Assembly (NCBI GenBank): GCA_020055645.1
Contig: CM034546.1
Location: forward strand, 82,894,001 to 82,958,000
DNA: 64,000 nt
Direction of reading: 5' to 3'
Source of the DNA: Tomocerus qinae
Lineage: Eukaryota; Arthropoda; Collembola; Entomobryomorpha; Tomoceridae
This document shows positions 33,932 through 64,000 of the stretch, one piece after another (within the stretch, counting starts at the first letter, position 1; every line of letters begins with the position of its first letter). The position numbers and the translations under genes are program-made. Under the pieces are notes generated by a model. That model made no database searches. It was given only the letters and a program-made list of their open reading frames with translations, and was not told where the DNA came from.

Positions 33932-33975
<44 letters not shown>

Positions 33976-38200: not shown

Positions 38201-39924
38201 AGACTGTACCATACATTGAGTGGAATCACGTACGGAGTGAGGAGAACCCTGCAGACTGTGCATCCAGAGGAATCCCACCGTCTGAACTCCTCACTCACAA
38301 TTTGTGGTGGAACGGGCCTGAGTGGCTCGCAGTGCCTGACTTTGTACCTACTAACTACATTGAACCGTGCGTCGCTCCGCCAGAAGAACGAACCAGGAAG
38401 GTGCTGCATGTGACCGTGGATGACTCTATGCTACATAGATATTCAGATGTAAGTCGACTACTTAATGTTACTGCATACTGTTTACGCTTCATACGTAATG
38501 CTCGAATGAAAGCAAGTGCACGACGTACTAGGCCAGAGCATGTCAGTCCACCCAACACGTCCGAATTAGATAGTGCATTGCATACTTGGGTGAAAATAGT
38601 TCAGGCTAACGAGTTTCACTCGGACATTTGTGCTCTAAAAGCAAATAAGGAATTACCCACTAGCAGTAAGTTGAAGTCACTAGTGCCCTTCCTTGATGAA
38701 CATGGAATTTTGCGTGTTGGCGGACGGCTGAAGAAATCAGCACTGCATACCGACGCCAAGCACCAAATCCTACTGCCGAAGAATCATCACTTCACTCAAC
38801 TCATCATTGCAGACTACCACAAGAAAGAATTGCACGCAGGGCCTCAGCTACTCCAAGCATCTATACAGCAGAAATACTGGATTCTGGCCGCTCGCGATGC
38901 AATAAGGAAATATGTGCGCCAGTGTGTACGGTGCTTTCGCTTCCGTGCACAAGCTACACAGCAGAGAATGGGAGAATTACCAGCATCTCGAGTAACCCCA
39001 GCACCTCCATTTCAACGGTGCGGAGTTGACTATGCTGGCCCATTTCTACTCACTGCACGGAAGGGACGAGGACAGAAGAGCTACATAGCCTATGTAGCTC
39101 TCTTCGTGTGCTTCGTGTCTCGTGCGATTCATTTGGAACTGGTGTCAGATTTGACTACGGATGCTTTCATGGCTGCATTCCGTAGATTTATTGCACGTCG
39201 TGGAAAGCCTACAGACGTGTATAGTGACTGTGGTACGAACTTTGTTGGTGCACGCAACAAGCTCGACGACCACTATAAGAAGTTCTTGTCTGCTGCACAT
39301 AACGAAGAAATGGAACGAGAGCTCGTACGTGAAAGGATTCACTGGCATCTTAATGCGCCTGCATCGCCACACCATGGAGGTATATGGGAGTCTGGCGTGA
39401 AGTCCATGAAGCATCACCTCCATAGAACGGCCGGCAATGCAATTCTCACCACAGAAGAGATGTCTACACTGCTAGCGCAAGTAGAAGCTTGCCTCAACTC
39501 CCGTCCTATCACTGAACTGTCAAGCGATCCGAACGACTTGCTGCCGCTTACGCCTGGACATTTCCTCATCGGACGGCCACTCACTGCACTCGCTGAGCCT
39601 TCGCTCACGCATCTGAAGGAGGGACACCTATGCCGCTGGCAACACGTACAGCAACTGTACCAGCACTTCTGGAACAGATGGTCTACGGAATATCTCGCGC
39701 GACTACAGCAACGTAAGAAGTGGACTACACAGCATCCCAACATTAAGGTAGGAGATGTAGTACTTCTTACGGATGAACGCCTTGCACCGAACAGATGGAA
39801 CCTAGGACTCATCACTGCTACTACGTCTGGAAAAGATGGTTTAGTGCGCGTAGTGACTGTGAAGACATCAGCAGGGAGTGTGCAACGCTCCATTGCTAAA
39901 GTGTGCATATTACCTATAGGATAA
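35155..39924 (+). CDS. BEL/Pao gag-pol polyprotein, 1589 codons
   Basis: A single frame encodes the gag and pol proteins. In order: a gag segment like DUF1759 (about 22-170); Cys/His zinc-knuckle region (about 205-265, CFNCLEFGHRTEHC); aspartic protease ALLDNGSQTS (about 326); reverse transcriptase (about 560-790, FTADLAKMYRQ and YVDD at 736-739); RNase H (GFSDAS, LPRLELC, WTDSTI, about 912-990); integrase with an H-H-C-C zinc part ending CVRC (1257-1260) and D1292, D1358, E1412; and a C-terminal DUF5641-like domain (about 1460-1589). No internal stop. Residues 1-21 come from the LTR; the usual gag N-terminus before the DUF1759 core is absent. The first ATG is the longest option; Met4 and Met15 are alternatives. 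Confidence 0.95.
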   Translation: MFFMIYHVYNYHITMNYKRFNIHHNTKLSGAQKLQYLKGAVDGEPSKLISSLQITDANYDVAWKTLEDRYQDKRELIRGTFVRLLSQQNIITDSPAMLQTLADTSRECVQSFVTLGIPKEEVCELLIVHIITQKLDSESRTQWERKQEKGKLPTFEQFCEFLDEQARVTAAAKPSSSKSQVKSKDRRPGAAMHYGSSDAKPRSECTFCSGEHHIFSCSAFAALTVPDRWTSVKSKALCFNCLEFGHRTEHCTKRKCRHCRKPHNRLLHPEKPPRKQDSPAPATTDLPEKVQVSFCSSLSASRTQTLLCTALVRVKDSKGQLQVCRALLDNGSQTSTITTACATRLGLRRRKVHIPISGIGGVDAGTYSEITSLSFSSCYATQPTFDVNAIVMKVITHPLPTYEITEVNWNHLHGLQLADPHYNVPSKIDMLLGMDIYNALLMDGMKKGAQGSPTAINTALGWIVGGKLGTTQPTSLATHHIHCDMDEALRKFWELEEVPRQKFLSLEEKECEEHYAATHSRNDDGRFVVRLPFKKSAEPLGDSRNIAMKRLKSTERRLSLDPPLHTEYQSVVSEYLQLKHMELVPEREVFPDRQVYYMPHHAVLKPTSTTTKLRVVFDASAASSNKVSLNENLLVGPKLQDDLVSILVRFRKHAIAFTADLAKMYRQVQMHRDDIDYQRILWRASTTEPVRDYRLLTATFGTASAPYLAIKSSQQLATYEEVKYPEAAQIVRRDFYVDDLMSGAESEEHAIKLQSDLIAMLQLGQFELRKWSSNSPVLLASVPSEMREINLPLSIDENETIKTLGLKWHPATDCFSFTVTLTQQVTAPTKRIVLSEIAKVFDPLGWLSPVTIVAKTFIQTLWKEEIGWDEALPHELQAHWNELREQLPTLHELKIPRHVLTVNVVETQLHGFSDASERAYAAVVFLRSVDASGTVRVRMVAAKSKVAPVKQVTLPRLELCAAVLLAKLMQCVHSALMLPVRENYGWTDSTITLAWLASPPQRWSTFVANRVSEVQQTVPYIEWNHVRSEENPADCASRGIPPSELLTHNLWWNGPEWLAVPDFVPTNYIEPCVAPPEERTRKVLHVTVDDSMLHRYSDVSRLLNVTAYCLRFIRNARMKASARRTRPEHVSPPNTSELDSALHTWVKIVQANEFHSDICALKANKELPTSSKLKSLVPFLDEHGILRVGGRLKKSALHTDAKHQILLPKNHHFTQLIIADYHKKELHAGPQLLQASIQQKYWILAARDAIRKYVRQCVRCFRFRAQATQQRMGELPASRVTPAPPFQRCGVDYAGPFLLTARKGRGQKSYIAYVALFVCFVSRAIHLELVSDLTTDAFMAAFRRFIARRGKPTDVYSDCGTNFVGARNKLDDHYKKFLSAAHNEEMERELVRERIHWHLNAPASPHHGGIWESGVKSMKHHLHRTAGNAILTTEEMSTLLAQVEACLNSRPITELSSDPNDLLPLTPGHFLIGRPLTALAEPSLTHLKEGHLCRWQHVQQLYQHFWNRWSTEYLARLQQRKKWTTQHPNIKVGDVVLLTDERLAPNRWNLGLITATTSGKDGLVRVVTVKTSAGSVQRSIAKVCILPIG

Positions 39925-40024
39925 ATAATGAATTTTTTATTGTATTTAGCTATATTTATCCTTGGCATGTATTATGTATTATGAATGTATGTATGTTAGC
40001 GTAGTAATTGAAATAGTGTATTTC

Positions 40025-40037
40025 AAGGCGGGGAAAA
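40025..40037 (+). promoter_or_regulatory. Polypurine tract of the BEL element
   Basis: aaggcggggaaaa lies immediately before the TGG that opens the 3' LTR. In LTR elements this purine run primes plus-strand DNA synthesis. Its exact abutment supports the LTR start. Confidence 0.8.
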
Positions 40038-40266
40038 TGGATAAACCTCGTTAATGCATTTTGGTATCTACACGAGGGAGCAAGACGTAAGTTCGAAACA
40101 GTCTTGTCTTGCCCCTTTGTTGAGTTTGGAATCTCTACAGGGAGACAGGACGTGTTAGTTCGAAACATTCTTGTCTCTAGCTTGTGCTTGAGCTTCTCAC
40201 TCGTCCCTACACATTTACATGTAGTAGATAGGGACAGTGGGAATCTCGTTAATCCATTCATGCGCT

Positions 40267-40310
<44 letters not shown>

Positions 40311-41374
40311 CAGTTACTCCCGAAGGAGTAAAGCCTACTCTCTTTCCCACAGCCAGCCTCCTGTACCTATCTTAGTGTTGAGTAGTAGTTTTTAGCAATA
40401 CATGTGTAAGCAGAATAGTTCTAGACGCACATTATTTTTTGTCAGTTCTTCAAAAAATATTTAATTTGCCCAATTAAATATTACTAGTGCTACCCTTAAT
40501 TACCTTACCTGTAATTAACCATAAATTGATTATTGTGTGTTTGTTTGTGTATGTGTGCCATTATTATTACATAATAAAAATCGTGTTTATTACACAAAAT
40601 TCAGTTCACGAAAGCACACATTACATTAAAGCATCCTGGATTTGGCATCTCTGGTTTTGGACTCTACCTGCAAGCGATATCGAAGTCAGCCCTCTACACA
40701 TATTCATCTCCAATTTCGAGATATTAAGGTTTTAATTCGCAATACCTCGAAATTAGTAAATAGTAGTCATAGATACTTCCCAATCACCTGTACTTGAGCT
40801 TTATTTATGGAATTCCCTGTATTTTGAAAAACCCATGTTTACAAAATGTCACCTTTGCTAATCAATTCCACTCAATCACCAATAATAAACCTAAGTAAAT
40901 TTCTACTTCCTAGTATTGTTATTTTCATGTTATAATGATTTATGAAACAACTCATTACGTTGGTTTAGAGGAAATGCATGAGTATGCGCATTTTGCTTTT
41001 AAGGAACCTGCATCTATTACGTGTGCAGTTGTTGGGGGAGTATATACCCAAAAGTGTTACAGTCAGTACTTGCGATTTCCGTTAAACATTGGCGAGGGGG
41101 TTTTGCGTTACGTAATATATGCACGTTCCCTAGGATCTCCTACCACCCATACATAGAGACATAGATAGGTTGGTACATGCCCCTATGCATTGTTCGGTGG
41201 TTTAGAGAAACTGAGCATGCGCATTTTGATTTTCGGAACACCCTACCAACCGTACATACATAGATAGATAGACACGTAAATTTTATCGATTCTGCGATTA
41301 TAATATAGAGATTGTTTTTCATGATATATCACGTTTATAACTATCATATAACTATGAACTACAAAAGATTTAAC
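40038..41374 (+). repeat. 3' LTR of the BEL element (1,337 bp)
   Basis: Direct repeat of 33703-35217, lacking the 178-bp segment. It ends caaaagatttaac followed by tagattt, whereas the 5' copy continues straight into gag (atccatcat). This defines the shared right border. Confidence 0.9.
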
Positions 41375-45422: not shown

Positions 45423-45571
45423 CTTAAGGCCCATATTTTTAATAAACACTCCCACTCTAATCTCCACTCTTTGAGAGTGTAAGGTATGTATTGAGGTACC
45501 TTTCACTCTCGAAAAAGTGCGTAAAAAGTGCGTGAGAGTGAGAGTCGAGTCATTAAAAATATGGGCCTAAG
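45423..45571. mobile_element. Small foldback abutting the 17-kb composite
   Basis: cttaaggcccatatttttaa at the left is mirrored by attaaaaatatgggcctaag at the right. Inner cactctc/gagagtg pairs follow. It ends at the first base of the composite's left terminal repeat. Confidence 0.7.
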
Positions 45572-46026
45572 TTAGACCGCTCTGACCTCGACAAAAGTCA
45601 ACATTTTTACTGTTTACATAAGCCTCATCCTATCTACCCGACACCAGACAGCCAACTACCTGACTCCTTCCCGATGCCCGACAGCGACCGAATCCTTCCC
45701 ACCCGACGTCCGACAACTAACTACCGGACCCCCGATGCCTAACCAACAGACACCCGCCGCCTTCCCACCCGACAACAGACGCCCTTCTACCCGACATTTA
45801 GATTGCTTGGAAAATTAAAAATTTTTACCCGATGGATGTGCAAGTCATAGCATACCCGAAAGTTTGAAGGCATGGACAGTCATAAGCTAGAGACATGACC
45901 TTTCTCTATGCCAATACCATCACTGGCGTTGTAAGCAGAAAAGAATAGAAAAACGGTTTAGTAGAAAAGCGATAGCCACAGTGCAATACTGAAAATAGCA
46001 ATAAATGCGTGACAGAGCCGCAGGGA
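45572..46026 (+). repeat. Left terminal inverted repeat, CCCGAC-rich
   Basis: After the terminal 32 bp it carries a minisatellite-like stretch (about 45637-45800) of cccgac, ccaacta and cagac motifs, much richer in GC than its surroundings. A segment with gtttgaaggcatggacagtc and catgacctttctctatgcca follows, ending gtgacagagccgcagggagg. All parts recur inverted at 62211-62743. Confidence 0.85.
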
Positions 46027-46327
46027 GGGGAGTATACGGCCTATGCATGGATAGGTATTCCCCTACTCCTTATACATGGATAGGTATGCACCTAAAGCTT
46101 GTGTGCATTTCTCCCTATGTACTCAGGCACACTGGCACACATGCAGTCTCCCCATGTTCTCAGGCACTACATGCATCCTCCCTTCATTCTCAGGCACACA
46201 TGTCCTTTTCTTATGCATGGATGCAGGTCTTGCAGGTATACAGCTAAAGCATGCCTGTATTTGTTCTTAGTCCCTATGCAGCTATGTACTCAGGCACATG
46301 CATTATCCCTACGGTTAAAGGACATGA

Positions 46328-46905
46328 CAATTCACATGACATAACGACACAGTGGTCAAATCACATGACATAACGACACAGTGGTCAAACCACATGACAT
46401 AACGACACAGTTTTCAAATCACATGACATAACGACTCAGTTTTCAAATCACATGACATACCCGCACAGTGGTCAAATCACATGACACATCACATGATATA
46501 CCCGCACAGTGGTCAAATCACATGACACATTACATGACATACCCGCACAGTGGTCAAATCACATGACATATCACATTACATGCCCGCACAGTGGTCAAAT
46601 CACATGACATATCACATGACATATCCCATTACATGCCTGCACAGTGGTCAAATCACATGACATAACGACACAGTTGGCAAATCACATGATAAAACCACAA
46701 AGTGGTGAAATCGCATGATAAAGGCGCACATTGGTCTAATCACATGATAAAAGCGCACAGTGGTCAAATCACATGACAAAGGCGAACAGTGGTCAAATCA
46801 CATGATAAAAGCGCACAGTGGTCAAATCACATGATAAAAGCGAACAGTGGTGAAATCACATGACAAAAGCCCATAGTGGTCAAATCACATGTTAAAACCG
46901 ATGTT
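46328..46905 (+). repeat. 29-bp array (CACAGTGGTCAAATCACATG...)
   Basis: Units of about 29 bp, gacacagtggtcaaatcaca followed by tgacataac, with variants in the cgcaca and gataaaagc parts. Repeated in each unit (49795-50360, 54314-54880, 58052-58618) and, in opposite orientation, at 61760-62070 in the right inverted arm. Confidence 0.9.
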
Positions 46906-47226
46906 AACGGAAATAAGTTTAACAATAAGCTTAAGGTCTAGGCAATAAGCTTATGCCTAGGCAATAAACTTAATGTATAGGCAATAAGGGCCAAGTCCAT
47001 CAACATTGTAAGGCTAGAGCCAAGGATTTGCCGCGTAAATGCTTTGTCTCACCGCGTTAACTTTTCAGATATTTAGTACTGCGCGCTATTAATATACACT
47101 GCAGTGAGAGTAAAAAGCAGAGAAGGTCATCCTTGTAGAACTACAAAAATAAATCAACTATCGTGAGGGGCTGTGCAAAAACAATTTATACGTAAACCCA
47201 GTCACTACCATAATGTCCAGAGTTTA

Positions 47227-48002
47227 ATATATACCGTTTCCAAATTGTTGAAAACCATTTCCAAGCTATTGGAAAACATTTCCAAGCAATTGGAAACCAT
47301 CCCCAAGCTATTGGAAACCATTCCCAAGCTATTGGAAACCATTCCCAAGCTATTGGAAACCATTTCCAAGCTATTGGAAAACATTTCCAAGCAATTGGAA
47401 ACCATTCCCAAGCTATTGGAAACCATTTTCAAGCTATTGGAAACCATTTCCAAGTTATTAGAAACCATTTCCATGTATTGGAATTCATTTCCAAGCCATT
47501 TGAAACTATTTCGAAGCTAAATCTATGACTTATGTCATTGGAAATGGCTTCCAAGCTATTGGAAACCATTTCCAAGCCATTTGAATCTATTTCGAAGCTA
47601 AATCTATGACTTCTTAATCATTAGAAATGGCTTCCAAGTCATTGGAAATGGCTTCCAAGTCATTGGAAATGGCTTCCAAGTCATTGAAAATGGCTTCCAA
47701 GTCATTGAAAATGGCTTCCAAGTCATTGAAAATGGCTTCCAAGTCATTGAAAATGGCTTCCAAGTCATTGAAAATGGCTTCCAAGTCATTGGAAATGGCT
47801 TCCAAGTCATTGGAAATGGCTTCCAAGTAATTGGAAATGGCTTCCAAGTAATTGGAAATGGCTTCCAAGTAATTGGAAATGGCTTCCAAGTAATTGGAAA
47901 TGGCTTCCAAGTCATTGGAAATGGCTTCCAAGTCATTGGAAATGGCTTCCAAGTCATTGGAAATGGCTTCCAAGTCATTGGAAATGGCTTCCAAGTCCTT
48001 GG
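47227..48002. repeat. 21-bp minisatellites of unit 1
   Basis: First array (47227-47515): attggaaaccatttccaagct. Second array (47537-48002): attggaaatggcttccaagtc, about 22 copies. Each unit contains the dyad TTGGAA...TTCCAA, so it can pair with itself. Long open frames on both strands result from a stop-free 21-bp period. Confidence 0.92.
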
Positions 48003-48179
48003 AAATTCTCGAAAAAATTAGATTATCTTTTGCATTTTTATTTTTTTAAATAATATTGAATGTTAAACATAAGTTTAAATACTTTGTTTCATTAATGCGT
48101 GTTTAAATCATTCAATATTTGCAAAAGATTATGCTTTTTCGAAAAATTTTCGAAATTTTGGCAAAAATGCATAATAGTA

Positions 48180-48595
48180 ATGATATGGGATGCTCTCAGA
48201 GAAAAACATTTTAAAGTTTATGAGGAAGTACATTGCAATTCGGATAATGGATCCAACCGCCGAGTTGATATTTTAGATATCAATGGAAAAACTGGTTACA
48301 TATTGATCCCACTATTAGGATCGAAAATCATATTGAACAACCTGAGGAAGTAAATATTGAGAAGAAATTAATCTACGAGCCATGTATCCAATATTTCATT
48401 AGTAAATACAAGCTAACGAACATTGAGGTTATTGGATTAATGATAGGATCTCGAGGTACAATTCCAACATTTTTTGACGAATTCCGGAAACGATTTTCTT
48501 TGTCTAAGGAATTGGTTAAAAAGATGGTGCTATCTGTGATTAGAAGTTCAAGTATGATACTTCATAATCATCTATTTAGCTCTAATTCAAACTGA
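48180..48595 (+). pseudogene. Endonuclease-like relic, unit 1
   Basis: The frame starts MIWDALREKHFKVYEEVHCN and continues DNGSNRRVDILDINGKTGYI. A one-base loss near 48303 shifts frame; the second part reads EEVNIEKKLIYEPC, IEVIGLMIGSRGTIPTFF and ends HLFSSNSN then TGA. I associate this pattern (a conserved RRVDI followed by TGYI, then GxxGTIP) with the C-terminal, restriction-endonuclease-like region of R2-type retrotransposon ORFs in invertebrates, from memory and not certain. No RT lies upstream. Confidence 0.6.
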
Positions 48596-48889
48596 ATATT
48601 AAATATATTAATATAATATATATTAAATAACTTTGTTACTTTGTTGAATTAATCAACCCATGTTGTAGTTTAAACTTATTACTGTGTCGTTATCGGCAAA
48701 CTTTATATGTATAAGTCAGTAGACTAATAAAGTCGATGTATGTATCTCTGAAAGTTTAGGCCTTAGAAAACCGTGGTTTTTTGTGAGAAGTCGAGCATCT
48801 GCTACTCTTTCAATTAGCTATTGCTATTTTGAAAAAGCTTGCACTTCAAAAATTAACTTTTTGAAATCGTTACAATTGAGGTAGAATCG

Positions 48890-49530
48890 CCCTAAGCTTA
48901 ATGGCCAAAAATGCCCGATATTAAGCTTAATGCCTAGTCTTTAAGCTTAGTGCCTAGGCTTTAAGCTTAATGCCTGGTCTTATTGCCTGATTTGATTGGA
49001 AATCAATGTAAACAGAAAAAACTTAAGTCTAATATACACATTCCATGTGTATTTATGTAAAATGCAAATGTACACGGTTAGGGATAGTCATTTAAAACAA
49101 TAATATGGGATTTTTACATGTATTTTAATTTCATAAATTTTACAAATGCTATATGCTAACACCACCGCCATTCGGATTTCCCAGTAAGTCGAGAGTTGCA
49201 TCGTTGTGACAATTCGAGCCTTCAGTTCAGCAATGTCTTGAGGTGTGGTTTATTCGTAATAAATGCGTGATTTAAAGTGTCTCCAAAGGAAAAATATCAA
49301 TTGTCCACATTTTACATAAATACACACATGGACTGTGTATATTAGACTTAAGTTTTTTCTGTTTACATTGATTTCCAATCAAATCAGGCAATATGACCAG
49401 GCATTAAGCTTAATGCCGAGTAAAATTCAGGCTTAAAGCCTAGGCATTAAGCTTAATGCCGGGCATTTTTAGGCATTAAGCTTATTGCCTAGGCATTAAA
49501 CTTAATGCTTGAATTTACTCATTTCCGTTA
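48890..49530. mobile_element. Inner TIR element with AAGCTTAATGCC palindromes
   Basis: The left arm (cctaagcttaatggccaaaa, aagcttaatgcctagtcttt, then gattggaaatcaatgtaaac and taagtctaatatacacat) is mirrored at about 49300-49530. The ends carry several copies of the 10-bp palindrome cattaagcttaatg and relatives. One copy is present in every tandem unit (about 53400-54030, 57140-57775, 60905-61540). Confidence 0.8.
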
Positions 49531-51003
49531 ATATATGCACCCACAGTGATCACATTTCATGATAAATGTGCAGAGTAGTCAAATCACGTTATATGCACAG
49601 TGGTCACATGCAGTCTCCCCATGTTCTCAGGCACTACATGCATCCTCCCTTCATTCTCAGGCACACATGTCCTTTTCTTATGCATGGATGCAGGTCTTGC
49701 AGGTATACAGCTAAAGCATGCCTGTATTTGTTCTTAGTCCCTATGCAGCTATGTACTCAGGCACATGCATTATCCCTACGGTTAAAGGACATGACAATTC
49801 ACATGACATAACGACACAGTGGTCAAATCACATGACATAACGACACAGTGGTCAAACCACATGACATAACGACACAGTTTTCAAATCACATGACATAACG
49901 ACTCAGTTTTCAAATCACATGACATACCCGCACAGTGGTCAAATCACATGACACATCACATGATATACCCGCACAGTGGTCAAATCACATGACACATTAC
50001 ATGACATACCCGCACAGTGGTCAAATCACATGACATATCACATTACATGCCCGCACAGTGGTCAAATCACATGACATATCACATGACATATCCCATTACA
50101 TGCCTGCACAGTGGTCAAATCACATGACATAACGACACAGTTGGCAAATCACATGATAAAACCACAAAGTGGTGAAATCGCATGATAAAGGCGCACATTG
50201 GTCTAATCACATGATAAAAGCGCACAGTGGTCAAATCACATGACAAAGGCGAACAGTGGTCAAATCACATGATAAAAGCGCACAGTGGTCAAATCACATG
50301 ATAAAAGCGAACAGTGGTGAAATCACATGACAAAAGCCCATAGTGGTCAAATCACATGTTAAAACCGATGTTAACGGAAATAAGTTTAACAATAAGCTTA
50401 AGGTCTAGGCAATAAGCTTATGCCTAGGCAATAAACTTAATGTATAGGCAATAAGGGCCAAGTCCATCAACATTGTAAGGCTAGAGCCAAGGATTTGCCG
50501 CGTAAATGCTTTGTCTCACCGCGTTAACTTTTCAGATATTTAGTACTGCGCGCTATTAATATACACTGCAGTGAGAGTAAAAAGCAGAGAAGGTCATCCT
50601 TGTAGAACTACAAAAATAAATCAACTATCGTGAGGGGCTGTGCAAAAACAATTTATACGTAAACCCAGTCACTACCATAATGTCCAGAGTTTAATATATA
50701 CCGTTTCCAAATTGTTGAAAACCATTTCCAAGCTATTGGAAAACATTTCCAAGCAATTGGAAACCATCCCCAAGCTATTGGAAACCATTCCCAAGCTATT
50801 GGAAACCATTCCCAAGCTATTGGAAACCATTTCCAAGCTATTGGAAAACATTTCCAAGCAATTGGAAACCATTCCCAAGCTATTGGAAACCATTTTCAAG
50901 CTATTGGAAACCATTTCCAAGTTATTAGAAACCATTTCCATGTATTGGAATTCATTTCCAAGCCATTTGAAACTATTTCGAAGCTAAATCTATGACTTAT
51001 GTC

Positions 51004-52523
51004 ATTGGAAATGGCTTCCAAGCTATTGGAAACCATTTCCAAGCCATTTGAATCTATTTCGAAGCTAAATCTATGACTTCTTAATCATTAGAAATGGCTT
51101 CCAAGTCATTGGAAATGGCTTCCAAGTCATTGGAAATGGCTTCCAAGTCATTGGAAATGGCTTCCAAGTCATTGGAAATGGCTTCCAAGTCATTGGAAAT
51201 GGCTTCCAAGTCATTGGAAATGGCTTCCAAGTCATTGGAAATGGCTTCCAAGTCATTGGAAATGGCTTCCAAGTCATTGGAAATGGCTTCCAAGTCATTG
51301 AAAATGGCTTCCAAGTCATTGGAAATGGCTTCCAAGTCATTGAAAATGGCTTCCAAGTCATTGAAAATGGCTTCCAAGTCATTGAAAATGGCTTCCAAGT
51401 CATTGAAAATGGCTTCCAAGTCATTGAAAATGGCTTCCAAGTCATTGAAAATGGCTTCCAAGTCATTGAAAATGGCTTCCAAGTCATTGAAAATGGCTTC
51501 CAAGTCATTGGAAATGGCTTCCAAGTCATTGGAAATGGCTTCCAAGTCATTGGAAATGGCTTCCAAGTAATTGGAAATGGCTTCCAAGTAATTGGAAATG
51601 GCTTCCAAGTAATTGGAAATGGCTTCCAAGTAATTGGAAATGGCTTCAAGTAATTGGAAATGGCTTCCAAGTAATTGGAAGTCATTGGAAATGGCTTCCA
51701 AGTCATTGGAAAATGGCTTCCAAGTCATTGGAAATGGCTTCCAAGTCATTGAAAATGGCTTCAAGTCATTGAAAATGGCTTCCAAGTCATTGAAAATGGC
51801 TTCAAGTCATTGAAAATGGCTTCCAAGTCATTGAAAATGGCTTCCAAGTCATTGAAAATGGCTTCCAAGTCATTGAAAATGGCTTCCAAGTCATTGGAAA
51901 TGGCTTCCAAGTCATTGGAAATGGCTTCCAAGTCATTGGAAATGGCTTCCAAGTAATTGGAAATGGCTTCCAAGTAATTGGAAATGGCTTCCAAGTAATT
52001 GGAAATGGCTTCCAAGTAATTGGAAATGGCTTCCAAGTAATTGGAAATGGCTTCCAAGTAATTGGAAATGGCTTCCAAGTCATTGGAAATGGCTTCCAAG
52101 TCATTGGAAATGGCTTCCAAGTCATTGGAAATGGCTTCCAAGTCATTGAAAATGGCTTCCAAGTCATTGAAAATGGCTTCCAAGTCATTGAAAATGGCTT
52201 CCAAGTCATTGAAAATGGCTTCCAAGTCATTGAAAATGGCTTCCAAGTCATTGAAAATGGCTTCCAAGTCATTGAAAATGGCTTCCAAGTCATTGGAAAT
52301 GGCTTCCAAGTCATTGGAAATGGCTTCCAAGTAATTGGAAATGGCTTCCAAGTAATTGGAAATGGCTTCCAAGTAATTGGAAATGGCTTCAAGTAATTGG
52401 AAATGGCTTCCAAGTAATTGGAAATGGCTTCAAGTAATTGGAAATGGCTTCCAAGTAATTGGAAATGGCTTCCAAGTCATTGGAAATGGCTTCAAGTCAT
52501 TGGAAATGGCTTCCAAGTCCTTG
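51004..52523. repeat. Expanded 21-bp minisatellite, unit 2
   Basis: About 72 copies of attggaaatggcttccaagt with c or a as the last variable base and attgg or attga at the start. Runs of like variants (gtcattgaaa about eight times, then gtcattgga three times, then gtaattgga about six times) occur twice, showing that a block of several hundred bp was itself duplicated. Confidence 0.92.
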
Positions 52524-52698
52524 AAATTCTCGAAAAAATTAGATTATCTTTTGCATTTTTATTTTTAAATAATATTGAATGTTAAACATAAGTTTAAATA
52601 CTTTGTTTCATTAATGCGTGTTTAAATCATTCAATATTTGCAAAAGATTATGCTTTTTCGAAAAATTTTCGAAATTTTGGCAAAAATGCATAATAGTA

Positions 52699-53115
52699 AT
52701 GATATGGGATGCTCTCAGAGAAAAAACATTTTAAAGTTTATGAGGAAGTACATTGCAATTCGGATAATGGATCCAACCGCCGAGTTGATATTTTAGATAT
52801 CAATGGAAAAACTGGTTACATATTGATCCCACTATTAGGATCGAAAATCATATTGAACAACCTGAGGAAGTAAATATTGAGAAGAAATTAATCTACGAGC
52901 CATGTATCCAATATTTCATTAGTAAATACAAGCTAACGAACATTGAGGTTATTGGATTAATGATAGGATCTCGAGGTACAATTCCAACATTTTTTGACGA
53001 ATTCCGGAAACGATTTTCTTTGTCTAAGGAATTGGTTAAAAAGATGGTGCTATCTGTGATTAGAAGTTCAAGTATGATACTTCATAATCATCTATTTAGC
53101 TCTAATTCAAACTGA
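52699..53115 (+). pseudogene. Endonuclease-like relic, unit 2
   Basis: As in unit 1, with the same one-base frameshift before the second half, plus an extra A in the run near 52723 that breaks the first half too. Confidence 0.6.
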
Positions 53116-55522
53116 ATATTAAATATATTAATATAATATATATTAAATAACTTTGTTACTTTGTTGAATTAATCAACCCATGTTGTAGTTTAAACTTATT
53201 ACTGTGTCGTTATCGGCAAACTTTATATGTATAAGTCAGTAGACTAATAAAGTCGATGTATGTATCTCTGAAAGTTTAGGCCTTAGAAAACCGTGGTTTT
53301 TTGTGAGAAGTCGAGCATCTGCTACTCTTTCAATTAGCTATTGCTATTTTGAAAAAGCTTGCACTTCAAAAATTAACTTTTTGAAATCGTTACAATTGAG
53401 GTAGAATCGCCCTAAGCTTAATGGCCAAAAATGCCCGATATTAAGCTTAATGCCTAGTCTTTAAGCTTAGTGCCTAGGCTTTAAGCTTAATGCCTGGTCT
53501 TATTGCCTGATTTGATTGGAAATCAATGTAAACAGAAAAAACTTAAGTCTAATATACACATTCCATGTGTATTTATGTAAAATGCAAATGTACACGGTTA
53601 GGGATAGTCATTTAAAACAATAATATGGGATTTTTACATGTATTTTAATTTCATAAATTTTACAAATGCTATATGCTAACACCACCGCCATTCGGATTTC
53701 CCAGTAAGTCGAGAGTTGCATCGTTGTGACAATTCGAGCCTTCAGTTCAGCAATGTCTTGAGGTGTGGTTTATTCGTAATAAATGCGTGATTTAAAGTGT
53801 CTCCAAAGGAAAAATATCAATTGTCCACATTTTACATAAATACACACATGGACTGTGTATATTAGACTTAAGTTTTTCTGTTTACATTGATTTCCAATCA
53901 AATCAGGCAATATGACCAGGCATTAAGCTTAATGCCGAGTAAAATTCAGGCTTAAAGCCTAGGCATTAAGCTTAATGCCGGGCATTTTTAGGCATTAAGC
54001 TTATTGCCTAGGCATTAAACTTAATGCTTGAATTTACTCATTTCCGTTAATATATGCACCCACAGTGATCACATTTCATGATAAATGTGCAGAGTAGTCA
54101 AATCACGTTATATGCACAGTGGTCACATGCAGTCTCCCCATGTTCTCAGGCACTACATGCATCCTCCCTTCATTCTCAGGCACACATGTCCTTTTCTTAT
54201 GCATGGATGCAGGTCTTGCAGGTATACAGCTAAAGCATGCCTGTATTTGTTCTTAGTCCCTATGCAGCTATGTACTCAGGCACATGCATTATCCCTACGG
54301 TTAAAGGACATGACAATTCACATGACATAACGACACAGTGGTCAAATCACATGACATAACGACACAGTGGTCAAACCACATGACATAACGACACAGTTTT
54401 CAAATCACATGACATAACGACTCAGTTTTCAAATCACATGACATACCCGCACAGTGGTCAAATCACATGACACATCACATGATATACCCGCACAGTGGTC
54501 AAATCACATGACACATTACATGACATACCCGCACAGTGGTCAAATCACATGACATATCACATTACATGCCCGCACAGTGGTCAAATCACATGACATATCA
54601 CATGACATATCCCATTACATGCCTGCACAGTGGTCAAATCACATGACATAACGACACAGTTGGCAAATCACATGATAAAACCACAAAGTGGTGAAATCGC
54701 ATGATAAAGGCGCACATTGGTCTAATCACATGATAAAAGCGCACAGTGGTCAAATCACATGACAAAGGCGAACAGTGGTCAAATCACATGATAAAAGCGC
54801 ACAGTGGTCAAATCACATGATAAAAGCGAACAGTGGTGAAATCACATGACAAAAGCCCATAGTGGTCAAATCACATGTTAAAACCGATGTTAACGGAAAT
54901 AAGTTTAACAATAAGCTTAAGGTCTAGGCAATAAGCTTATGCCTAGGCAATAAACTTAATGTATAGGCAATAAGGGCCAAGTCCATCAACATTGTAAGGC
55001 TAGAGCCAAGGATTTGCCGCGTAAATGCTTTGTCTCACCGCGTTAACTTTTCAGATATTTAGTACTGCGCGCTATTAATATACACTGCAGTGAGAGTAAA
55101 AAGCAGAGAAGGTCATCCTTGTAGAACTACAAAAATAAATCAACTATCGTGAGGGGCTGTGCAAAAACAATTTATACGTAAACCCAGTCACTACCATAAT
55201 GTCCAGAGTTTAATATATACCGTTTCCAAATTGTTGAAAACCATTTCCAAGCTATTGGAAAACATTTCCAAGCAATTGGAAACCATCCCCAAGCTATTGG
55301 AAACCATTCCCAAGCTATTGGAAACCATTCCCAAGCTATTGGAAACCATTTCCAAGCTATTGGAAAACATTTCCAAGCAATTGGAAACCATTCCCAAGCT
55401 ATTGGAAACCATTTTCAAGCTATTGGAAACCATTTCCAAGTTATTAGAAACCATTTCCATGTATTGGAATTCATTTCCAAGCCATTTGAAACTATTTCGA
55501 AGCTAAATCTATGACTTATGTC

Positions 55523-56261
55523 ATTGGAAATGGCTTCCAAGCTATTGGAAACCATTTCCAAGCCATTTGAATCTATTTCGAAGCTAAATCTATGACTTCT
55601 TAATCATTAGAAATGGCTTCCAAGTCATTGGAAATGGCTTCCAAGTCATTGGAAATGGCTTCCAAGTCATTGGAAATGGCTTCCAAGTCATTGGAAATGG
55701 CTTCCAAGTCATTGGAAATGGCTTCCAAGTCATTGGAAATGGCTTCCAAGTCATTGGAAATGGCTTCCAAGTCATTGGAAATGGCTTCCAAGTCATTGGA
55801 AATGGCTTCCAAGTCATTGAAAATGGCTTCCAAGTCATTGGAAATGGCTTCCAAGTCATTGAAAATGGCTTCCAAGTCATTGAAAATGGCTTCCAAGTCA
55901 TTGAAAATGGCTTCCAAGTCATTGAAAATGGCTTCCAAGTCATTGAAAATGGCTTCCAAGTCATTGAAAATGGCTTCCAAGTCATTGAAAATGGCTTCCA
56001 AGTCATTGGAAATGGCTTCCAAGTCATTGGAAATGGCTTCCAAGTCATTGGAAATGGCTTCCAAGTAATTGGAAATGGCTTCCAAGTAATTGGAAATGGC
56101 TTCCAAGTAATTGGAAATGGCTTCCAAGTAATTGGAAATGGCTTCCAAGTAATTGGAAATGGCTTCCAAGTAATTGGAAATGGCTTCCAAGTAATTGGAA
56201 ATGGCTTCCAAGTCATTGGAAATGGCTTCCAAGTCATTGGAAATGGCTTCCAAGTCCTTGG
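55523..56261. repeat. 21-bp minisatellite, unit 3
   Basis: About 35 copies of attggaaatggcttccaagt(c/a), with variants ordered as in the left half of the unit 2 array. Confidence 0.92.
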
Positions 56262-56438
56262 AAATTCTCGAAAAAATTAGATTATCTTTTGCATTTTTAT
56301 TTTTTTAAATAATATTGAATGTTAAACATAAGTTTAAATACTTTGTTTCATTAATGCGTGTTTAAATCATTCAATATTTGCAAAAGATTATGCTTTTTCG
56401 AAAAATTTTCGAAATTTTGGCAAAAATGCATAATAGTA

Positions 56439-56853
56439 ATGATATGGGATGCTCTCAGAGAAAAACATTTTAAAGTTTATGAGGAAGTACATTGCAATTC
56501 GGATAATGGATCCAACCGCCGAGTTGATATTTTAGATATCAATGGAAAAACTGGTTACATATTGATCCCACTATTAGGATCGAAAATCATATTGAACAAC
56601 CTGAGGAAGTAAATATTGAGAAGAAATTAATCTACGAGCCATGTATCCAATATTTCATTAGTAAATACAAGCTAACGAACATTGAGGTTATTGGATTAAT
56701 GATAGGATCTCGAGGTACAATTCCAACATTTTTTGACGAATTCCGGAAACGATTTTCTTTGTCTAAGGAATTGGTTAAAAGATGGTGCTATCTGTGATTA
56801 GAAGTTCAAGTATGATACTTCATAATCATCTATTTAGCTCTAATTCAAACTGA
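56439..56853 (+). pseudogene. Endonuclease-like relic, unit 3
   Basis: Same shared frameshift; an additional base loss (ggttaaaagatgg) near 56778 breaks the second half. Confidence 0.6.
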
Positions 56854-59260
56854 ATATTAAATATATTAATATAATATATATTAAATAACTTTGTTACTTT
56901 GTTGAATTAATCAACCCATGTTGTAGTTTAAACTTATTACTGTGTCGTTATCGGCAAACTTTATATGTATAAGTCAGTAGACTAATAAAGTCGATGTATG
57001 TATCTCTGAAAGTTTAGGCCTTAGAAAACCGTGGTTTTTTGTGAGAAGTCGAGCATCTGCTACTCTTTCAATTAGCTATTGCTATTTTGAAAAAGCTTGC
57101 ACTTCAAAAATTAACTTTTTGAAATCGTTACAATTGAGGTAGAATCGCCCTAAGCTTAATGGCCAAAAATGCCCGATATTAAGCTTAATGCCTAGTCTTT
57201 AAGCTTAGTGCCTAGGCTTTAAGCTTAATGCCTGGTCTTATTGCCTGATTTGATTGGAAATCAATGTAAACAGAAAAAACTTAAGTCTAATATACACATT
57301 CCATGTGTATTTATGTAAAATGCAAATGTACACGGTTAGGGATAGTCATTTAAAACAATAATATGGGATTTTTACATGTATTTTAATTTCATAAATTTTA
57401 CAAATGCTATATGCTAACACCACCGCCATTCGGATTTCCCAGTAAGTCGAGAGTTGCATCGTTGTGACAATTCGAGCCTTCAGTTCAGCAATGTCTTGAG
57501 GTGTGGTTTATTCGTAATAAATGCGTGATTTAAAGTGTCTCCAAAGGAAAAATATCAATTGTCCACATTTTACATAAATACACACATGGACTGTGTATAT
57601 TAGACTTAAGTTTTTCTGTTTACATTGATTTCCAATCAAATCAGGCAATATGACCAGGCATTAAGCTTAATGCCGAGTAAAATTCAGGCTTAAAGCCTAG
57701 GCATTAAGCTTAATGCCGGGCATTTTTAGGCATTAAGCTTATTGCCTAGGCATTAAACTTAATGCTTGAATTTACTCATTTCCGTTAATATATGCACCCA
57801 CAGTGATCACATTTCATGATAAATGTGCAGAGTAGTCAAATCACGTTATATGCACAGTGGTCACATGCAGTCTCCCCATGTTCTCAGGCACTACATGCAT
57901 CCTCCCTTCATTCTCAGGCACACATGTCCTTTTCTTATGCATGGATGCAGGTCTTGCAGGTATACAGCTAAAGCATGCCTGTATTTGTTCTTAGTCCCTA
58001 TGCAGCTATGTACTCAGGCACATGCATTATCCCTACGGTTAAAGGACATGACAATTCACATGACATAACGACACAGTGGTCAAATCACATGACATAACGA
58101 CACAGTGGTCAAACCACATGACATAACGACACAGTTTTCAAATCACATGACATAACGACTCAGTTTTCAAATCACATGACATACCCGCACAGTGGTCAAA
58201 TCACATGACACATCACATGATATACCCGCACAGTGGTCAAATCACATGACACATTACATGACATACCCGCACAGTGGTCAAATCACATGACATATCACAT
58301 TACATGCCCGCACAGTGGTCAAATCACATGACATATCACATGACATATCCCATTACATGCCTGCACAGTGGTCAAATCACATGACATAACGACACAGTTG
58401 GCAAATCACATGATAAAACCACAAAGTGGTGAAATCGCATGATAAAGGCGCACATTGGTCTAATCACATGATAAAAGCGCACAGTGGTCAAATCACATGA
58501 CAAAGGCGAACAGTGGTCAAATCACATGATAAAAGCGCACAGTGGTCAAATCACATGATAAAAGCGAACAGTGGTGAAATCACATGACAAAAGCCCATAG
58601 TGGTCAAATCACATGTTAAAACCGATGTTAACGGAAATAAGTTTAACAATAAGCTTAAGGTCTAGGCAATAAGCTTATGCCTAGGCAATAAACTTAATGT
58701 ATAGGCAATAAGGGCCAAGTCCATCAACATTGTAAGGCTAGAGCCAAGGATTTGCCGCGTAAATGCTTTGTCTCACCGCGTTAACTTTTCAGATATTTAG
58801 TACTGCGCGCTATTAATATACACTGCAGTGAGAGTAAAAAGCAGAGAAGGTCATCCTTGTAGAACTACAAAAATAAATCAACTATCGTGAGGGGCTGTGC
58901 AAAAACAATTTATACGTAAACCCAGTCACTACCATAATGTCCAGAGTTTAATATATACCGTTTCCAAATTGTTGAAAACCATTTCCAAGCTATTGGAAAA
59001 CATTTCCAAGCAATTGGAAACCATCCCCAAGCTATTGGAAACCATTCCCAAGCTATTGGAAACCATTCCCAAGCTATTGGAAACCATTTCCAAGCTATTG
59101 GAAAACATTTCCAAGCAATTGGAAACCATTCCCAAGCTATTGGAAACCATTTCCAAGCTATTGGAAACCATTTCCAAGTTATTAGAAACCATTTCCATGT
59201 ATTGGAATTCATTTCCAAGCCATTTGAAACTATTTCGAAGCTAAATCTATGACTTATGTC

Positions 59261-60020
59261 ATTGGAAATGGCTTCCAAGCTATTGGAAACCATTTCCAAG
59301 CCATTTGAATCTATTTCGAAGCTAAATCTATGACTTCTTAATCATTAGAAATGGCTTCCAAGTCATTGGAAATGGCTTCCAAGTCATTGGAAATGGCTTC
59401 CAAGTCATTGGAAATGGCTTCCAAGTCATTGGAAATGGCTTCCAAGTCATTGGAAATGGCTTCCAAGTCATTGGAAATGGCTTCCAAGTCATTGGAAATG
59501 GCTTCCAAGTCATTGGAAATGGCTTCCAAGTCATTGGAAATGGCTTCCAAGTCATTGGAAATGGCTTCCAAGTCATTGAAAATGGCTTCCAAGTCATTGA
59601 AAATGGCTTCCAAGTCATTGAAAATGGCTTCCAAGTCATTGGAAATGGCTTCCAAGTCATTGGAAATGGCTTCCAAGTCATTGGAAATGGCTTCCAAGTC
59701 ATTGGAAATGGCTTCCAAGTCATTGGAAATGGCTTCCAAGTCATTGGAAATGGCTTCCAAGTCATTGGAAATGGCTTCCAAGTCATTGGAAATGGCTTCC
59801 AAGTCATTGGAAATGGCTTCCAAGTAATTGGAAATGGCTTCCAAGTAATTGGAAATGGCTTCCAAGTAATTGGAAATGGCTTCCAAGTAATTGGAAATGG
59901 CTTCCAAGTAATTGGAAATGGCTTCCAAGTAATTGGAAATGGCTTCCAAGTAATTGGAAATGGCTTCCAAGTCATTGGAAATGGCTTCCAAGTCATTGGA
60001 AATGGCTTCCAAGTCCTTGG
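59261..60020. repeat. 21-bp minisatellite, unit 4
   Basis: About 36 copies. Here most of the units that read gtcattgaa in unit 3 read gtcattgga, which suggests homogenisation within the array. Confidence 0.92.
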
Positions 60021-60197
60021 AAATTCTCGAAAAAATTAGATTATCTTTTGCATTTTTATTTTTTTAAATAATATTGAATGTTAAACATAAGTTTAAATAC
60101 TTTGTTTCATTAATGCGTGTTTAAATCATTCAATAGTTGCAAAAGATTATGCTTTTTCGAAAAATTTTCGAAATTTTGGCAAAAATGCATAATAGTA

Positions 60198-60613
60198 ATG
60201 ATATGGGATGCTCTCAGAGAAAAACATTTTAAAGTTTATGAGGAAGTACATTGCAATTCGGATAATGGATCCAACCGCCGAGTTGATATTTTAGATATCA
60301 ATGGAAAAACTGGTTACATATTGATCCCACTATTAGGATCGAAAATCATATTGAACAACCTGAGGAAGTAAATATTGAGAAGAAATTAATCTACGAGCCA
60401 TGTATCCAATATTTCATTAGTAAATACAAGCTAACGAACATTGAGGTTATTGGATTAATGATAGGATCTCGAGGTACAATTCCAACATTTTTTGACGAAT
60501 TCCGGAAACGATTTTCTTTGTCTAAGGAATTGGTTAAAAAGATCGTGCTATCTGTGATTAGAAGTTCAAGTATGATACTTCATAATCATCTATTTAGCTC
60601 TAATTCAAACTGA
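60198..60613 (+). pseudogene. Endonuclease-like relic, unit 4
   Basis: Same shared frameshift as the other three copies; one substitution (aagatcgtgc) in the second half. Confidence 0.6.
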
Positions 60614-61759
60614 ATATTAAATATAATAATATAATATATATTAAATAACTTTGTTACTTTGTTGAATTAATCAACCCATGTTGTAGTTTAAACTTATTAC
60701 TGTGTCGTTATCGGCAAACTTTATATGTATAAGTCAGTAGACTAATAAAGTCGATGTATGTATCTCTGAAAGTTTAGGCCTTAGAAAACCGTGGTTTTTT
60801 GTGAGAAGTCGAGCATCTGCTACTCTTTCAATTAGCTATTGCTATTTTGAAAAAGCTTGCACTTCAAAAATTAACTTTTTGAAATCTTTACAATTGAGGT
60901 AGAATCGCCCTAAGCTTAATGGCCAAAAATGCCCGATATTAAGCTTAATGCCTAGTCTTTAAGCTTAGTGCCTAGGCTTTAAGCTTAATGCCTGGTCTTA
61001 TTGCCTGATTTGATTGGAAATCAATGTAAACAGAAAAAACTTAAGTCTAATATACACATTCCATGTGTATTTATGTAAAATGCAAATGTACACGGTTAGG
61101 GATAGTCATTTAAAACAATAATATGGGATTTTTACATGTATTTTAATTTCATAAATTTTACAAATGCTATATGCTAACACCACCGCCATTCGGATTTCCC
61201 AGTAAGTCGAGAGTTGCATCGTTGTGACAATTCGAGCCTTCAGTTCAGCAATGTCTTGAGGTGTGGTTTATTCGTAATAAATGCGTGATTTAAAGTGTCT
61301 CCAAAGGAAAAATATCAATTGTCCACATTTTACATAAATACACACATGGACTGTGTATATTAGACTTAAGTTTTTTCTGTTTACATTGATTTCCAATCAA
61401 ATCAGGCAATATGACCAGGCATTAAGCTTAATGCCGAGTAAAATTCAGGCTTAAAGCCTAGGCATTAAGCTTAATGCCGGGCATTTTTAGGCATTAAGCT
61501 TATTGCCTAGGCATTAAACTTAATGCTTGAATTTACTCATTTCCGTTAATATATGCACCCACAGTGATCACATTTCATGATAAATGTGCAGAGTAGTCAA
61601 ATCACGTTATATGCACAGTGGTCACATGCGGCACAATTTTGTAAATTTAAATCTACTACCGTGACCATTTGTATGTTAATTGGTGATTGTGCACATTTGT
61701 CATGTAATTTTAAAACAGTGCATCTATTTGAAGCTATTTCTTTATGATTCCACGGGTGT

Positions 61760-62070
61760 ACGCTTTTATCACGTTATTTGACCACTGTGCGGTTTTGTTT
61801 TGTGGTTTGACCAATGCGGTTTTATCATGTGATTTGACCACTGTGCATTTTTATCCTGTGATTTAACCACTGTGCGGTTTTATTATGTGACTTGACGACT
61901 GTGCGGTTTTATCATGTGATTTGACTACTGTGTCATTATGTCATGTGACTTGACGACTGTGCGGTTTTATCATGTGATTTGACCCCTGTGCTGTTATGTC
62001 TTGTGATTTGCAAACTTTTTCGTTATGTCATGTGATTTGTAAACTGTGTCGTTATGTCATGTAATTTGAC
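61760..62070 (-). repeat. 29-bp array in the right inverted arm
   Basis: Reverse-complement copies of the 29-bp unit (tcatgtgatttgaccactgt), more diverged than those inside the tandem units. Confidence 0.85.
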
Positions 62071-62210
62071 TCAGACACATGCATTATCCGCGTAGGTATA
62101 ATACGTGGTCTCGGAGAACATACGTATGATGCATGTGCCTGAGAACATAGGGATAATGCATATGTCTGAGTGCGTAAGGATACGTCATGTGCCTAAGCAC
62201 ATAGGAAGGC

Positions 62211-62743
62211 CCCTCCCTACGGCTCTGTCACGCATTTATTGCTATTTTCAGTATTGCACTGTGGCAGTAATCGCTTTTCTACTAAACCGTTTTTCTATTA
62301 TTTTCTGCTTACAACACCAGTGATGGTATTGGCATAGAGAAAGGTCATGTCTCTAGCTTATGACTGTCCATGCCTTCAAACTTTCGGGTATGCTATGACT
62401 TGCACATCCATCGGGTAAAAATCTTTAATTTTCACAGCAATCTAAATGTCGGGTAGAAGGACGTCTGTTGTCGGGTGGGAAGGCGGCGGGTGTCTGTTGG
62501 TTAGGCAACGGGTGTCCGGTAGTTAGTTGTCGGACGTCGGGTGGGAAGGATTTGGTCGCTGTCGGGCATCGGGTGTCTGGTAGTTGGCTCTCGGTTGTCG
62601 GGTAGATAGGATTTGGTCGTTGTCGGGTGTCGGGTGGGAAGGAGTCTGGTAATAGTTGGCTGTCTGGTGTCGGGTAGGTAGATAGGATGAGCCTCAAGTA
62701 AACAGTAAAATTGTTGACTTTTGTCGAGGTCAGAGCGGTCTAA
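62211..62743 (-). repeat. Right terminal inverted repeat, CCCGAC-rich
   Basis: Inverted counterpart of 45572-46026, about 78 bp longer because the gtcggg minisatellite region (62447-62680) has extra copies. Ends tcgaggtcagagcggtctaa. Confidence 0.85.
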
Positions 62744-62848
62744 TTTAAAGTGAAAACAACGTATGTGAGGCTGTCACAGTCCTGCCATGTGAAATAATTT
62801 CATCTGTTTTTCACACCCCTATGGAAACATCCTAGAGATGACATCGAA

Positions 62849-62886
62849 AATGACCTTCTCACCTCGACAAAAGTCAACAATTTTAC
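62849..62886. repeat. Isolated terminus of the composite family
   Basis: tgaccttctcacctcgacaa followed by aagtcaacaattttactt resembles the left end of the composite (ctctgacctcgacaaaagtc) in direct orientation, 105 bp outside it. Confidence 0.6.
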
Positions 62887-63052
62887 TTGTCTAGAATCTA
62901 TACCGTTATTGCTTTCCAGCAATACGGTCTAGTATCGTTGGCTCTACCAAATGCATTCTGTTTGCCACGGAATCCGTGGCAAACAGAGGTGATGACCGAC
63001 AATGAGGCGAGGTGGAAATGAGTGGAGGCGGCCAAAATATCCATGGTTATTA
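62886..63052. mobile_element. Half of a foldback like that at 21101
   Basis: gtctagaatctataccgtta, the gccacggaatccgtggcaaa palindrome and gatgaccgacaatgaggcga match the left half of 21101-21407. The other arm is missing. Confidence 0.7.
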
Positions 63053-63559: not shown

Positions 63560-64000
63560 AATGGATTAATGGTCACTATAAAAATCAGCAGTAAATCATA
63601 GAATAATGTTTACCATCAAAATCAACAGAAAATCATAGAATAATGTTCACTATCAAAATCAACAGAAAATCTTAGAATAATGTTCACTATCAAAATCAAC
63701 AGAAAATCAAAGTAGATAATTGTTGACTAAAAATCAACAAAAACCTCAAAATTGATTAATATTGAGTATCAAAATAAACAAAAAGTCAAAATTGATTAAT
63801 ATTGAGTTTAAAAATCAAAAGACAATCTAAATTGAATAATATTGAGTATTAAAATCAAAAGAAAATCCTATAATCCTATAATATGTATTTTCCGGTTATC
63901 TTTACTTTATTATAAAATCTTAAATTTTGTCGAAGCGGAGTTAAATATTGGATACTATCCGTTAACAATTCATAGGAAACACAATTTAATTTTTAATGTC
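63560..64000 (+). mobile_element. Array-plus-tail element, copy 3 (cut by window end)
   Basis: Units of gttcactatcaaaatcaacag run to about 63870. The start of the conserved tail follows (tcgaagcggagttaaatatt near 63931). It continues past the window. Confidence 0.8.

What the first reader, a model, noticed from the sequence alone, without database searches (positions are those of the whole stretch)
45572..62743. Giant foldback-like composite with four recently amplified 3-kb units
Exactly matching outer ends and long inverted arms bound four head-to-tail units. Each unit is 2,999-3,001 bp plus one variable 21-bp array, so almost all length variation comes from the array. Units differ by only a few bases, so amplification is recent. 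No known transposon class with these ends, this inner organisation and no transposase comes to mind; it may be an undescribed non-autonomous family.
Basis: partly seen in the sequence, partly recalled or inferred. Interest (0 to 1): 0.85.

Follow-up and report, generated by a model that had tools for sequence, protein, structure and literature searches.

The report
Old Foldback transposon with quadrupled middle
This is one large copy of an ordinary kind of mobile DNA with long inverted ends (a Foldback transposon), in which the 3-4.5 kb middle section has been copied four times in a row; the elaborate pattern is real, but the transposon class is known.

Summary
In detail: inverted arms enclose four head-to-tail, almost identical units. 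The reading needs three corrections. (1) The element ends at 45622 and 62693 (GGCTCATCC...), not at 45572/62743; the outer 50 bp belong to another repeat. (2) The class is known: 12 other two-ended copies were found (0.56-15.7 kb); 10 of 13 tested end pairs have identical 9- or 10-bp target duplications, and a nested copy gives an empty site. Long arms with internal tandem repeats plus such duplications mark Foldback / Mutator-like elements (Tetris, Tm1, FB4). (3) The unit is not a family trait: probes of 343 and 1,594 bp matched end to end only in the four units, among 40 scored candidates each. It holds an array, a truncated LINE end and another inverted-repeat element, and its junctions share a 7-bp microhomology. 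The window copy lacks a target duplication; its arms (94-96% alike) look old, while the units differ at only 2-9 positions in ~3.07 kb. No transposase frame was seen in it. Total copy number, species and unit number in reads remain unknown.

The parts
45561..45621 (+). left flank: fragment of another dispersed/palindromic repeat; holds the 32-bp perfect 'outer end' 45572-45603
   Evidence: matches L032, L033 and L034 over 45561-45622 at 87-88%; high-copy in genome
45622..46030 (+). outer part of left Foldback arm, starts GCCTCATCC (family GGCTCATCC)
   Evidence: family end pattern; arm identity
46031..46327 (+). left arm inner zone with ~27-30 bp repeats
46328..46897 (+). 29-bp array (CAAATCACATGA..CACAGTGGT), left arm side, included in unit 1
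   Evidence: TRF; inverted counterpart at 61757-62070
46141..49607 (+). unit 1 (3,467 bp)
49608..54126 (+). unit 2 (4,519 bp; 21-bp array 1,452 bp)
54127..57864 (+). unit 3 (3,738 bp)
57865..61625 (+). unit 4 (3,761 bp)
46904..49531 (.). nested second inverted-repeat element inside unit 1 (TTAACGGAAAT...ATTTCCGTTAA)
   Evidence: its two ends match many other genome places
47233..48006 (+). 21-bp arrays of unit 1; the part 47618-48006 (TCATTGGAAATGGCTTCCAAG type) is the length-variable one
48189..48745 (+). 5'-truncated 3' end of a LINE (frame broken in unit 1); related copies elsewhere carry a reverse transcriptase upstream
48893..49484 (.). inner inverted repeat (arms of ~172-177 bp, 89%) of the nested element
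61626..61756 (+). stretch between unit 4 and the right-arm array
61757..62070 (-). 29-bp array of right arm (inverted relative to left)
62071..62209 (-). right arm 27-bp repeat zone
62210..62693 (-). outer part of right Foldback arm, ends ..GGATGAGCC
62694..62887 (.). right flank: copy of the other palindromic repeat (inverted pieces 62694-62740 and 62851-62887)

Best explanation
The thing is an old, non-autonomous Foldback-type DNA transposon (core 45622-62693, 17,072 bp), most likely of the Mutator-like (MULE) superfamily. Shown: arms with internal tandem repeats; a genome family with the same ends; 9-10 bp target duplications in that family; one empty site. Inferred: a MULE transposase acting on the GGCTCATCC ends moved the ancestor, which had one copy of the middle. 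Its middle had picked up a second inverted-repeat element carrying a 21-bp array and a dead LINE 3' end (nesting seen in the sequence, order inferred). A tandem duplication between two CACATGC sites, one in the left arm (46138-46144) and one just before the right-arm array (61623-61629), then made a 3.5-kb direct repeat (junctions shown, event inferred). Unequal exchange or replication slippage raised it to four, and the 21-bp array changed length separately in each unit. The unit was found at this locus only, so the amplification most likely happened in place and did not spread with transposition. The outer 50 bp are flanking DNA: parts of a separate palindromic, partly satellite-forming repeat.
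For: Family: 40 scored of 390 candidates, 77 matches, many as facing pairs. Ends and TSDs: of 13 non-window end pairs, 9 have an exact 9-bp and 1 an exact 10-bp duplication. Nested copy L020:1004-8696 with GTATTGTAA on both sides; its joined flanks match 11 of 11 tested subjects (10 loci and the window) across the junction, 83.8-99.5%. In the 387-bp arm core, 7 TSD-bearing copies have arms 98.5-100% alike, the window 96%, with its two arms sisters at support 0.988. All 13 relatives' stretches scanned (12 elements) contain tandem arrays, as do L020 and L025. Unit probes of 343 and 1,594 bp full-length only at the 4 units, 40 scored of 138 and of 598 candidates. Unit junctions share CACATGC. MULE domains PF10551 occur in the genome, 59 matches.
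Against: The window copy itself has no target duplication: 4 of 9 bases match at 45622/62693 and no direct repeat of 7 bp or more was found near 45572/62743. No transposase was found between family arms, and the nearest of 59 MULE matches is 108 kb from the nearest of 40 arms, so Mutator membership rests on duplication size and architecture; one search used one family model and reads no introns. L015 and L017 show no exact duplication either (L017 7 of 9). Arm identity is an uneven clock: L013, with a duplication, has arms only 89% alike over 852 columns, and L016 and L022 could not enter the core comparison with both arms. Homogeneity of the units could come from gene conversion instead of recent amplification. 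Genome searches by DNA score only the best candidates. Unit number is as assembled; no reads were available.
Confidence: 0.85

Rival explanations
1. The whole 45572-62743 block is a member of an undescribed transposon class with its own ends (TTAGACC...) and a modular four-unit interior.
For: 32-bp perfect inverted match at the very outside, above the 16-20 bp of 20 Markov windows.
Against: In one search (40 scored of 275 candidates, 44 matches) only the two window ends run from the outer 50 bp into the arm; the other 42 matches stop at query position 51 or before. 10 of 13 other end pairs have their target duplications at GGCTCATCC. The unit was found at this locus only.
Confidence: 0.04
2. 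The four units are an assembly artefact (misjoin or over-expansion of one unit).
For: Units nearly identical; unit 2's array has several one-base deletions not seen in the other three, as consensus errors might give.
Against: Each unit has its own array length and pattern, and unit 4 has five substitutions not shared by the others, so they are not copies of one read; the contig is 140 Mb long.
Confidence: 0.1
3. The copy is a product of ectopic recombination: two arms from different insertions of the family, as in chimeric Galileo copies, which explains the missing target duplication and the inverted flanks.
For: No target duplication; flanks are inverted pieces of one other repeat cut at the same place; Galileo chimeras bounded by different 7-bp sequences are described (PMC3573991, passages).
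Against: The two arms are each other's closest relatives among the 25 arms compared, unlike chimeras of different subfamilies. Exchange between near-identical copies, or decay of the duplication, remains possible.
Confidence: 0.3
4. The family belongs to another superfamily that has evolved foldback arms (as Galileo, of the P superfamily, did).
For: Foldback architecture may arise in different lineages (PMC4079207, Discussion part 1). L011 holds a DUF659 / hAT-dimerisation-like gene piece between its arms.
Against: Target duplications are 9-10 bp; 8 for hAT is recalled, 7 for Galileo is. The hAT-like scores are below the Pfam cut-offs; I saw that gene piece in L011 only, among the copies whose ORFs I listed (L011, L014, L015, L018/L019), so a captured or nested piece is likelier.
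Confidence: 0.12

Closest known systems
Tetris (Foldback, Drosophila virilis; PMC4079207)
   Same: Non-autonomous, arms with internal tandem repeats, variable middle, 8-10 bp target duplications, tandem amplification within the element
   Different: In Tetris the amplified repeat is a ~220-bp part of the arms forming satellite arrays; here a 3.5-4.5 kb unit made of arm, middle and nested elements is present fourfold at one locus. Arm sequences were not compared
Tm1 (Mutator/Foldback, root-knot nematodes; PMC3169594)
   Same: Composite arms of variable length with internal repeats, mostly 9-bp target duplications, non-autonomous groups
   Different: A transposase-bearing copy is known in Tm1, none found here; arm sequences were not compared
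Drosophila FB4 (passages in PMC8277862)
   Same: ~700-bp repetitive arms, 9-10 bp target duplications, non-autonomous, capture of other DNA
   Different: Arm sequences were not compared; four large direct units not described in the passages read
Galileo (P superfamily; passages in PMC3573991)
   Same: Long arms with tandem repeats of changing number; chimeric copies without matching target duplications
   Different: 7-bp target duplications against 9-10 bp here

Membership tests
Foldback elements | long terminal inverted repeats holding internal tandem repeats | tested here: met
   TRF and self-comparison of window and relatives
Foldback elements | middle of variable content and size, usually non-coding | tested here: met
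   two-ended copies 556-15,702 bp, window 17,072 bp; gene-like frames seen in L011 and L018/L019
Foldback / Mutator-like | 8-10 bp, mostly 9-bp, target duplications | tested here: met
   family: 9 of 13 end pairs 9 bp and 1 of 13 10 bp; empty site. The window copy alone: not met (4 of 9 bases)
Mutator superfamily (MULE) | MULE transposase in an autonomous member with the same ends | tested here: inconclusive
   PF10551 has 59 matches in the genome, nearest 108 kb from the 40 arms known; the genome-wide search for all ends did not complete
hAT superfamily | 8-bp target duplication and short terminal repeats (recalled) | tested here: not met
   9-10 bp duplications and arms of several hundred bp
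Repbase/Dfam library entry | match to a described consensus | not testable with these tools
   no such library on hand

The most novel reading that the evidence does not exclude
A Foldback transposon acting as a seed for a macrosatellite: arm-borne short repeats give microhomology for duplication of the whole arm-plus-middle block, making a higher-order tandem array with 3.5-4.5 kb monomers, each holding a nested 21-bp array that varies on its own. This would extend the Tetris model from arm repeats to whole composite blocks.
Probability: 0.2. Interest if true: 0.45.

Novelty: new member of a known kind. Interest (0 to 1): 0.27.

Why it matters
It gives a readable case of how a mobile element may become a tandem array in place: insertion, nesting of other elements, one microhomology-joined duplication, then growth to four units while a short array inside each unit drifts. 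It also shows how flanking repeats in inverted order can pass for transposon ends. For genome annotation it defines a Foldback family with clear ends and target duplications in this (unnamed) genome.

Tried and rejected
TTAGACC as the element's end: rejected, because the outer 50 bp match other repeats and not other arms. Polinton/Maverick, because of size and arms: considered for the 15.7-kb relative L018/L019; of six of its frames scanned against Pfam one had C2H2 zinc fingers and the others nothing above the cut-offs; duplications are 9 bp, not 6 (6 recalled). hAT because of the gene piece in L011: rejected on duplication length. Chimera of two subfamilies: not supported by the arm tree. 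An earlier identity table on fixed 650-bp pieces put the window's own arms at 83.6%, and L016, L015 and L022 at 77, 82 and 66%; it was confounded by indels and by an insert in L016, and is not used. PDB search of the LINE piece: best E 0.19. The nested element's own target duplication was not resolved. Papers: PMC4079207 abstract, passages, Discussion part 1; PMC3169594 abstract and passages; PMC3573991 and PMC8277862 passages and start of abstract. Four literature searches were made; in the last two I saw 12 of 178 and 1 of 1 papers listed, none described by title or start of abstract as kb-size unit amplification within a Foldback; the library is open-access papers only.
Full report
Setting. 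The window is C1:82894001-82958000 of an unnamed 334-Mb genome in 115 contigs; contigs C1-C5 are 140, 72, 52, 34 and 24 Mb long. Its retrotransposons point to a eukaryote; the species was not identified.

Observation. The described structure is there. The outer 32 bp are perfectly inverted at 45572/62743; inner arms are 94.3% alike over 407 columns, the outer stretch 85% over 133. The longest inverted matches in 20 Markov windows are 16-20 bp. Four units start at 46141, 49608, 54127, 57865. After removing the 21-bp array the units are 3,067-3,069 bp long; the first 1,467 bp differ by 0-1 positions between units and the last ~1,606 bp by 2-8, counting gap columns, so 2-9 in all over six pairs.

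The family. The 455-bp left end gave 390 candidates in the genome, 40 scored, 77 matches. I fetched 20 stretches around them. Their arms are inverted repeats of up to ~900 bp; L009, L010, L011, L012, L014, L016 and L018/19 have their longest stretches 97.7-99.9% alike, while L013 is 89% over 852 columns and L015 85-94%. Aligned ends begin GGCTCATCC. Of the 20 loci (two adjoining ones joined, so 19) 13 non-window end pairs could be tested: L009, L010, L011, L012, L013, L014, L018/19, L020 (1004-8696) and L022 have exact 9-bp target duplications, L016 10 bp, and L015, L017 (7 of 9 bases) and L020 (604-8696) none; the last pairs an outer end with the end of a nested copy, so 12 elements are two-ended. 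The other seven loci showed ends of one direction only or none. The nested copy in L020 gives an empty site: its joined flanks match 11 of 11 tested subjects across the junction at 83.8-99.5%; six of the 11 alignments have no gap, five have 2-12 gap positions. All 13 stretches scanned with Tandem Repeats Finder (12 elements) hold arrays with 22-, 27- to 32- or 76-bp units, and several have other arrays (18, 20 or 55 bp); L020 and L025 have 146-bp arrays of over 30 copies. The two-ended copies are 556 to 15,702 bp long.

The window copy. Its own ends are at 45622 and 62693, giving 17,072 bp, and it has no target duplication (4 of 9 bases). Its two arms are sisters in a tree of the 387-bp core of 25 arms (support 0.988) at 96%, against 98.5-100% within L009, L010, L011, L012, L013, L014 and L018/19, and 95% in L015; L016 and L022 gave one core arm each and are not in this comparison. 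So it is probably an older copy.

The outer 50 bp. Searched with 19 bp of arm (69 bp in all), they gave 275 candidates, 40 scored; 42 of 44 matches stop at or before query position 51, and only the window's two ends run on into the arm. Elsewhere this stretch sits in a palindromic repeat, and in a ~395-bp tandem array in L045-L047. The right flank keeps matching that repeat to 62861-62862 and has a second inverted piece at 62851-62887; the left flank matches it from 45561. So I take these as flanks. Why both flanks are the same repeat, cut at the same point and inverted, is not solved; recombination or conversion at the ends is the likeliest reason (inference).

The unit. A 1,594-bp probe of its second half is matched end to end only by the four units; the others listed are partial matches to its components (40 scored of 598, list cut). 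A 343-bp probe of its first half likewise (40 of 138). Components: 48189-48745 is the 3' end of a LINE, of which other copies run on into a reverse transcriptase (RVT_1 E 4e-24 in L043, 7e-07 in L042); its frame is broken in unit 1. I recall the part after the reverse transcriptase as resembling the endonuclease of R2-type LINEs; no call showed that, and Pfam found nothing in the two pieces. 46904-49531 is bounded by TTAACGG ends like those that bound elements in L060-L062. The unit's edges are the two places where CACATGC occurs, in the left arm (46138-46144) and at 61623-61629. The ancestral one-unit element would have been about 5-6 kb, within the size range of its relatives (inference from unit lengths).

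Mechanism. Most likely: insertion by a Mutator-like transposase, decay, nesting, one tandem duplication at a 7-bp microhomology, and growth to four by unequal exchange or slippage. The first step is inferred from the family; the junctions and homogeneity are shown; the exchange mechanism is inferred. Homogeneity could also be kept up by conversion. MULE domains exist in the genome (59 matches at E 0.001 or better), but none lies within 100 kb of the 40 arms known, and the search for all ends did not complete.

Comparison. Tetris (PMC4079207) has the same design, 8-10 bp duplications and tandem growth inside the element; its authors say that most foldbacks seem to be Mutator-like. Tm1 (PMC3169594) has 9-bp duplications and a putative Mutator-type transposase. 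FB4 has 9-10 bp duplications and ~700-bp arms (PMC8277862). Galileo (PMC3573991) shows tandem-repeat growth in arms and chimeras without duplications. The window element therefore fits Foldback by the features tested on its family; the missing duplication concerns this copy and two others (L015, L017).

Verdict. A real, attractive structure; a new member of a known kind. The fourfold kb-size unit is unusual but, as far as searched, local.

Noticed in passing
window 33703-41374: A Pao-type LTR retrotransposon with a 1,590-aa open frame (35152-39924; Peptidase_A17 E 4e-53); its direct end repeats are nearly identical (952 of 952 bp, and 387 bp with one difference, with an extra ~176 bp in the left one), so it looks young. 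Only observed.
   Followed up: partly
window 17978-19511 and 27912-29444: A 1.53-kb inverted pair at 99.7% identity, 8.4 kb apart, with ends CTATAGGGGCC; the only direct repeats found there are parts of the ends themselves. Perhaps another long-armed element.
   Followed up: partly
L045, L046, L047 (C4:16.69 Mb, C4:20.02 Mb, C1:52.55 Mb): A ~395-bp tandem array containing the palindromic repeat that also flanks the window element; a satellite linked to a dispersed inverted repeat.
   Followed up: partly
L018/L019 (C5:19286983-19302684): A 15.7-kb family member with arms 99.9% alike holds a frame with two C2H2 zinc fingers and other gene-like frames, possibly captured gene pieces.
   Followed up: partly
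L011:3880-5473: A DUF659 / hAT-like gene piece (below Pfam cut-offs) lies between Foldback arms in an 8.7-kb copy.
   Followed up: partly
L020 and L025 (C2:11.97 Mb, C4:9.93 Mb): As far as fetched, two loci carry the same nested arrangement, a family copy with a 146-bp array inserted in an arm of another copy, suggesting that the composite itself moved or was duplicated.
   Followed up: partly
window 51085-52527: The 21-bp array of unit 2 has several one-base deletions (CTTCAAG for CTTCCAAG) that are absent from the other three arrays: real variation or consensus errors.
   Followed up: no
window 2142-3290, 3690-4217, 8093-8338, 10718-11613, 63567-63867: Other tandem arrays of 18-43 bp; a 40-bp type recurs at several places of the window, and a like one is in L016.
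   Followed up: no
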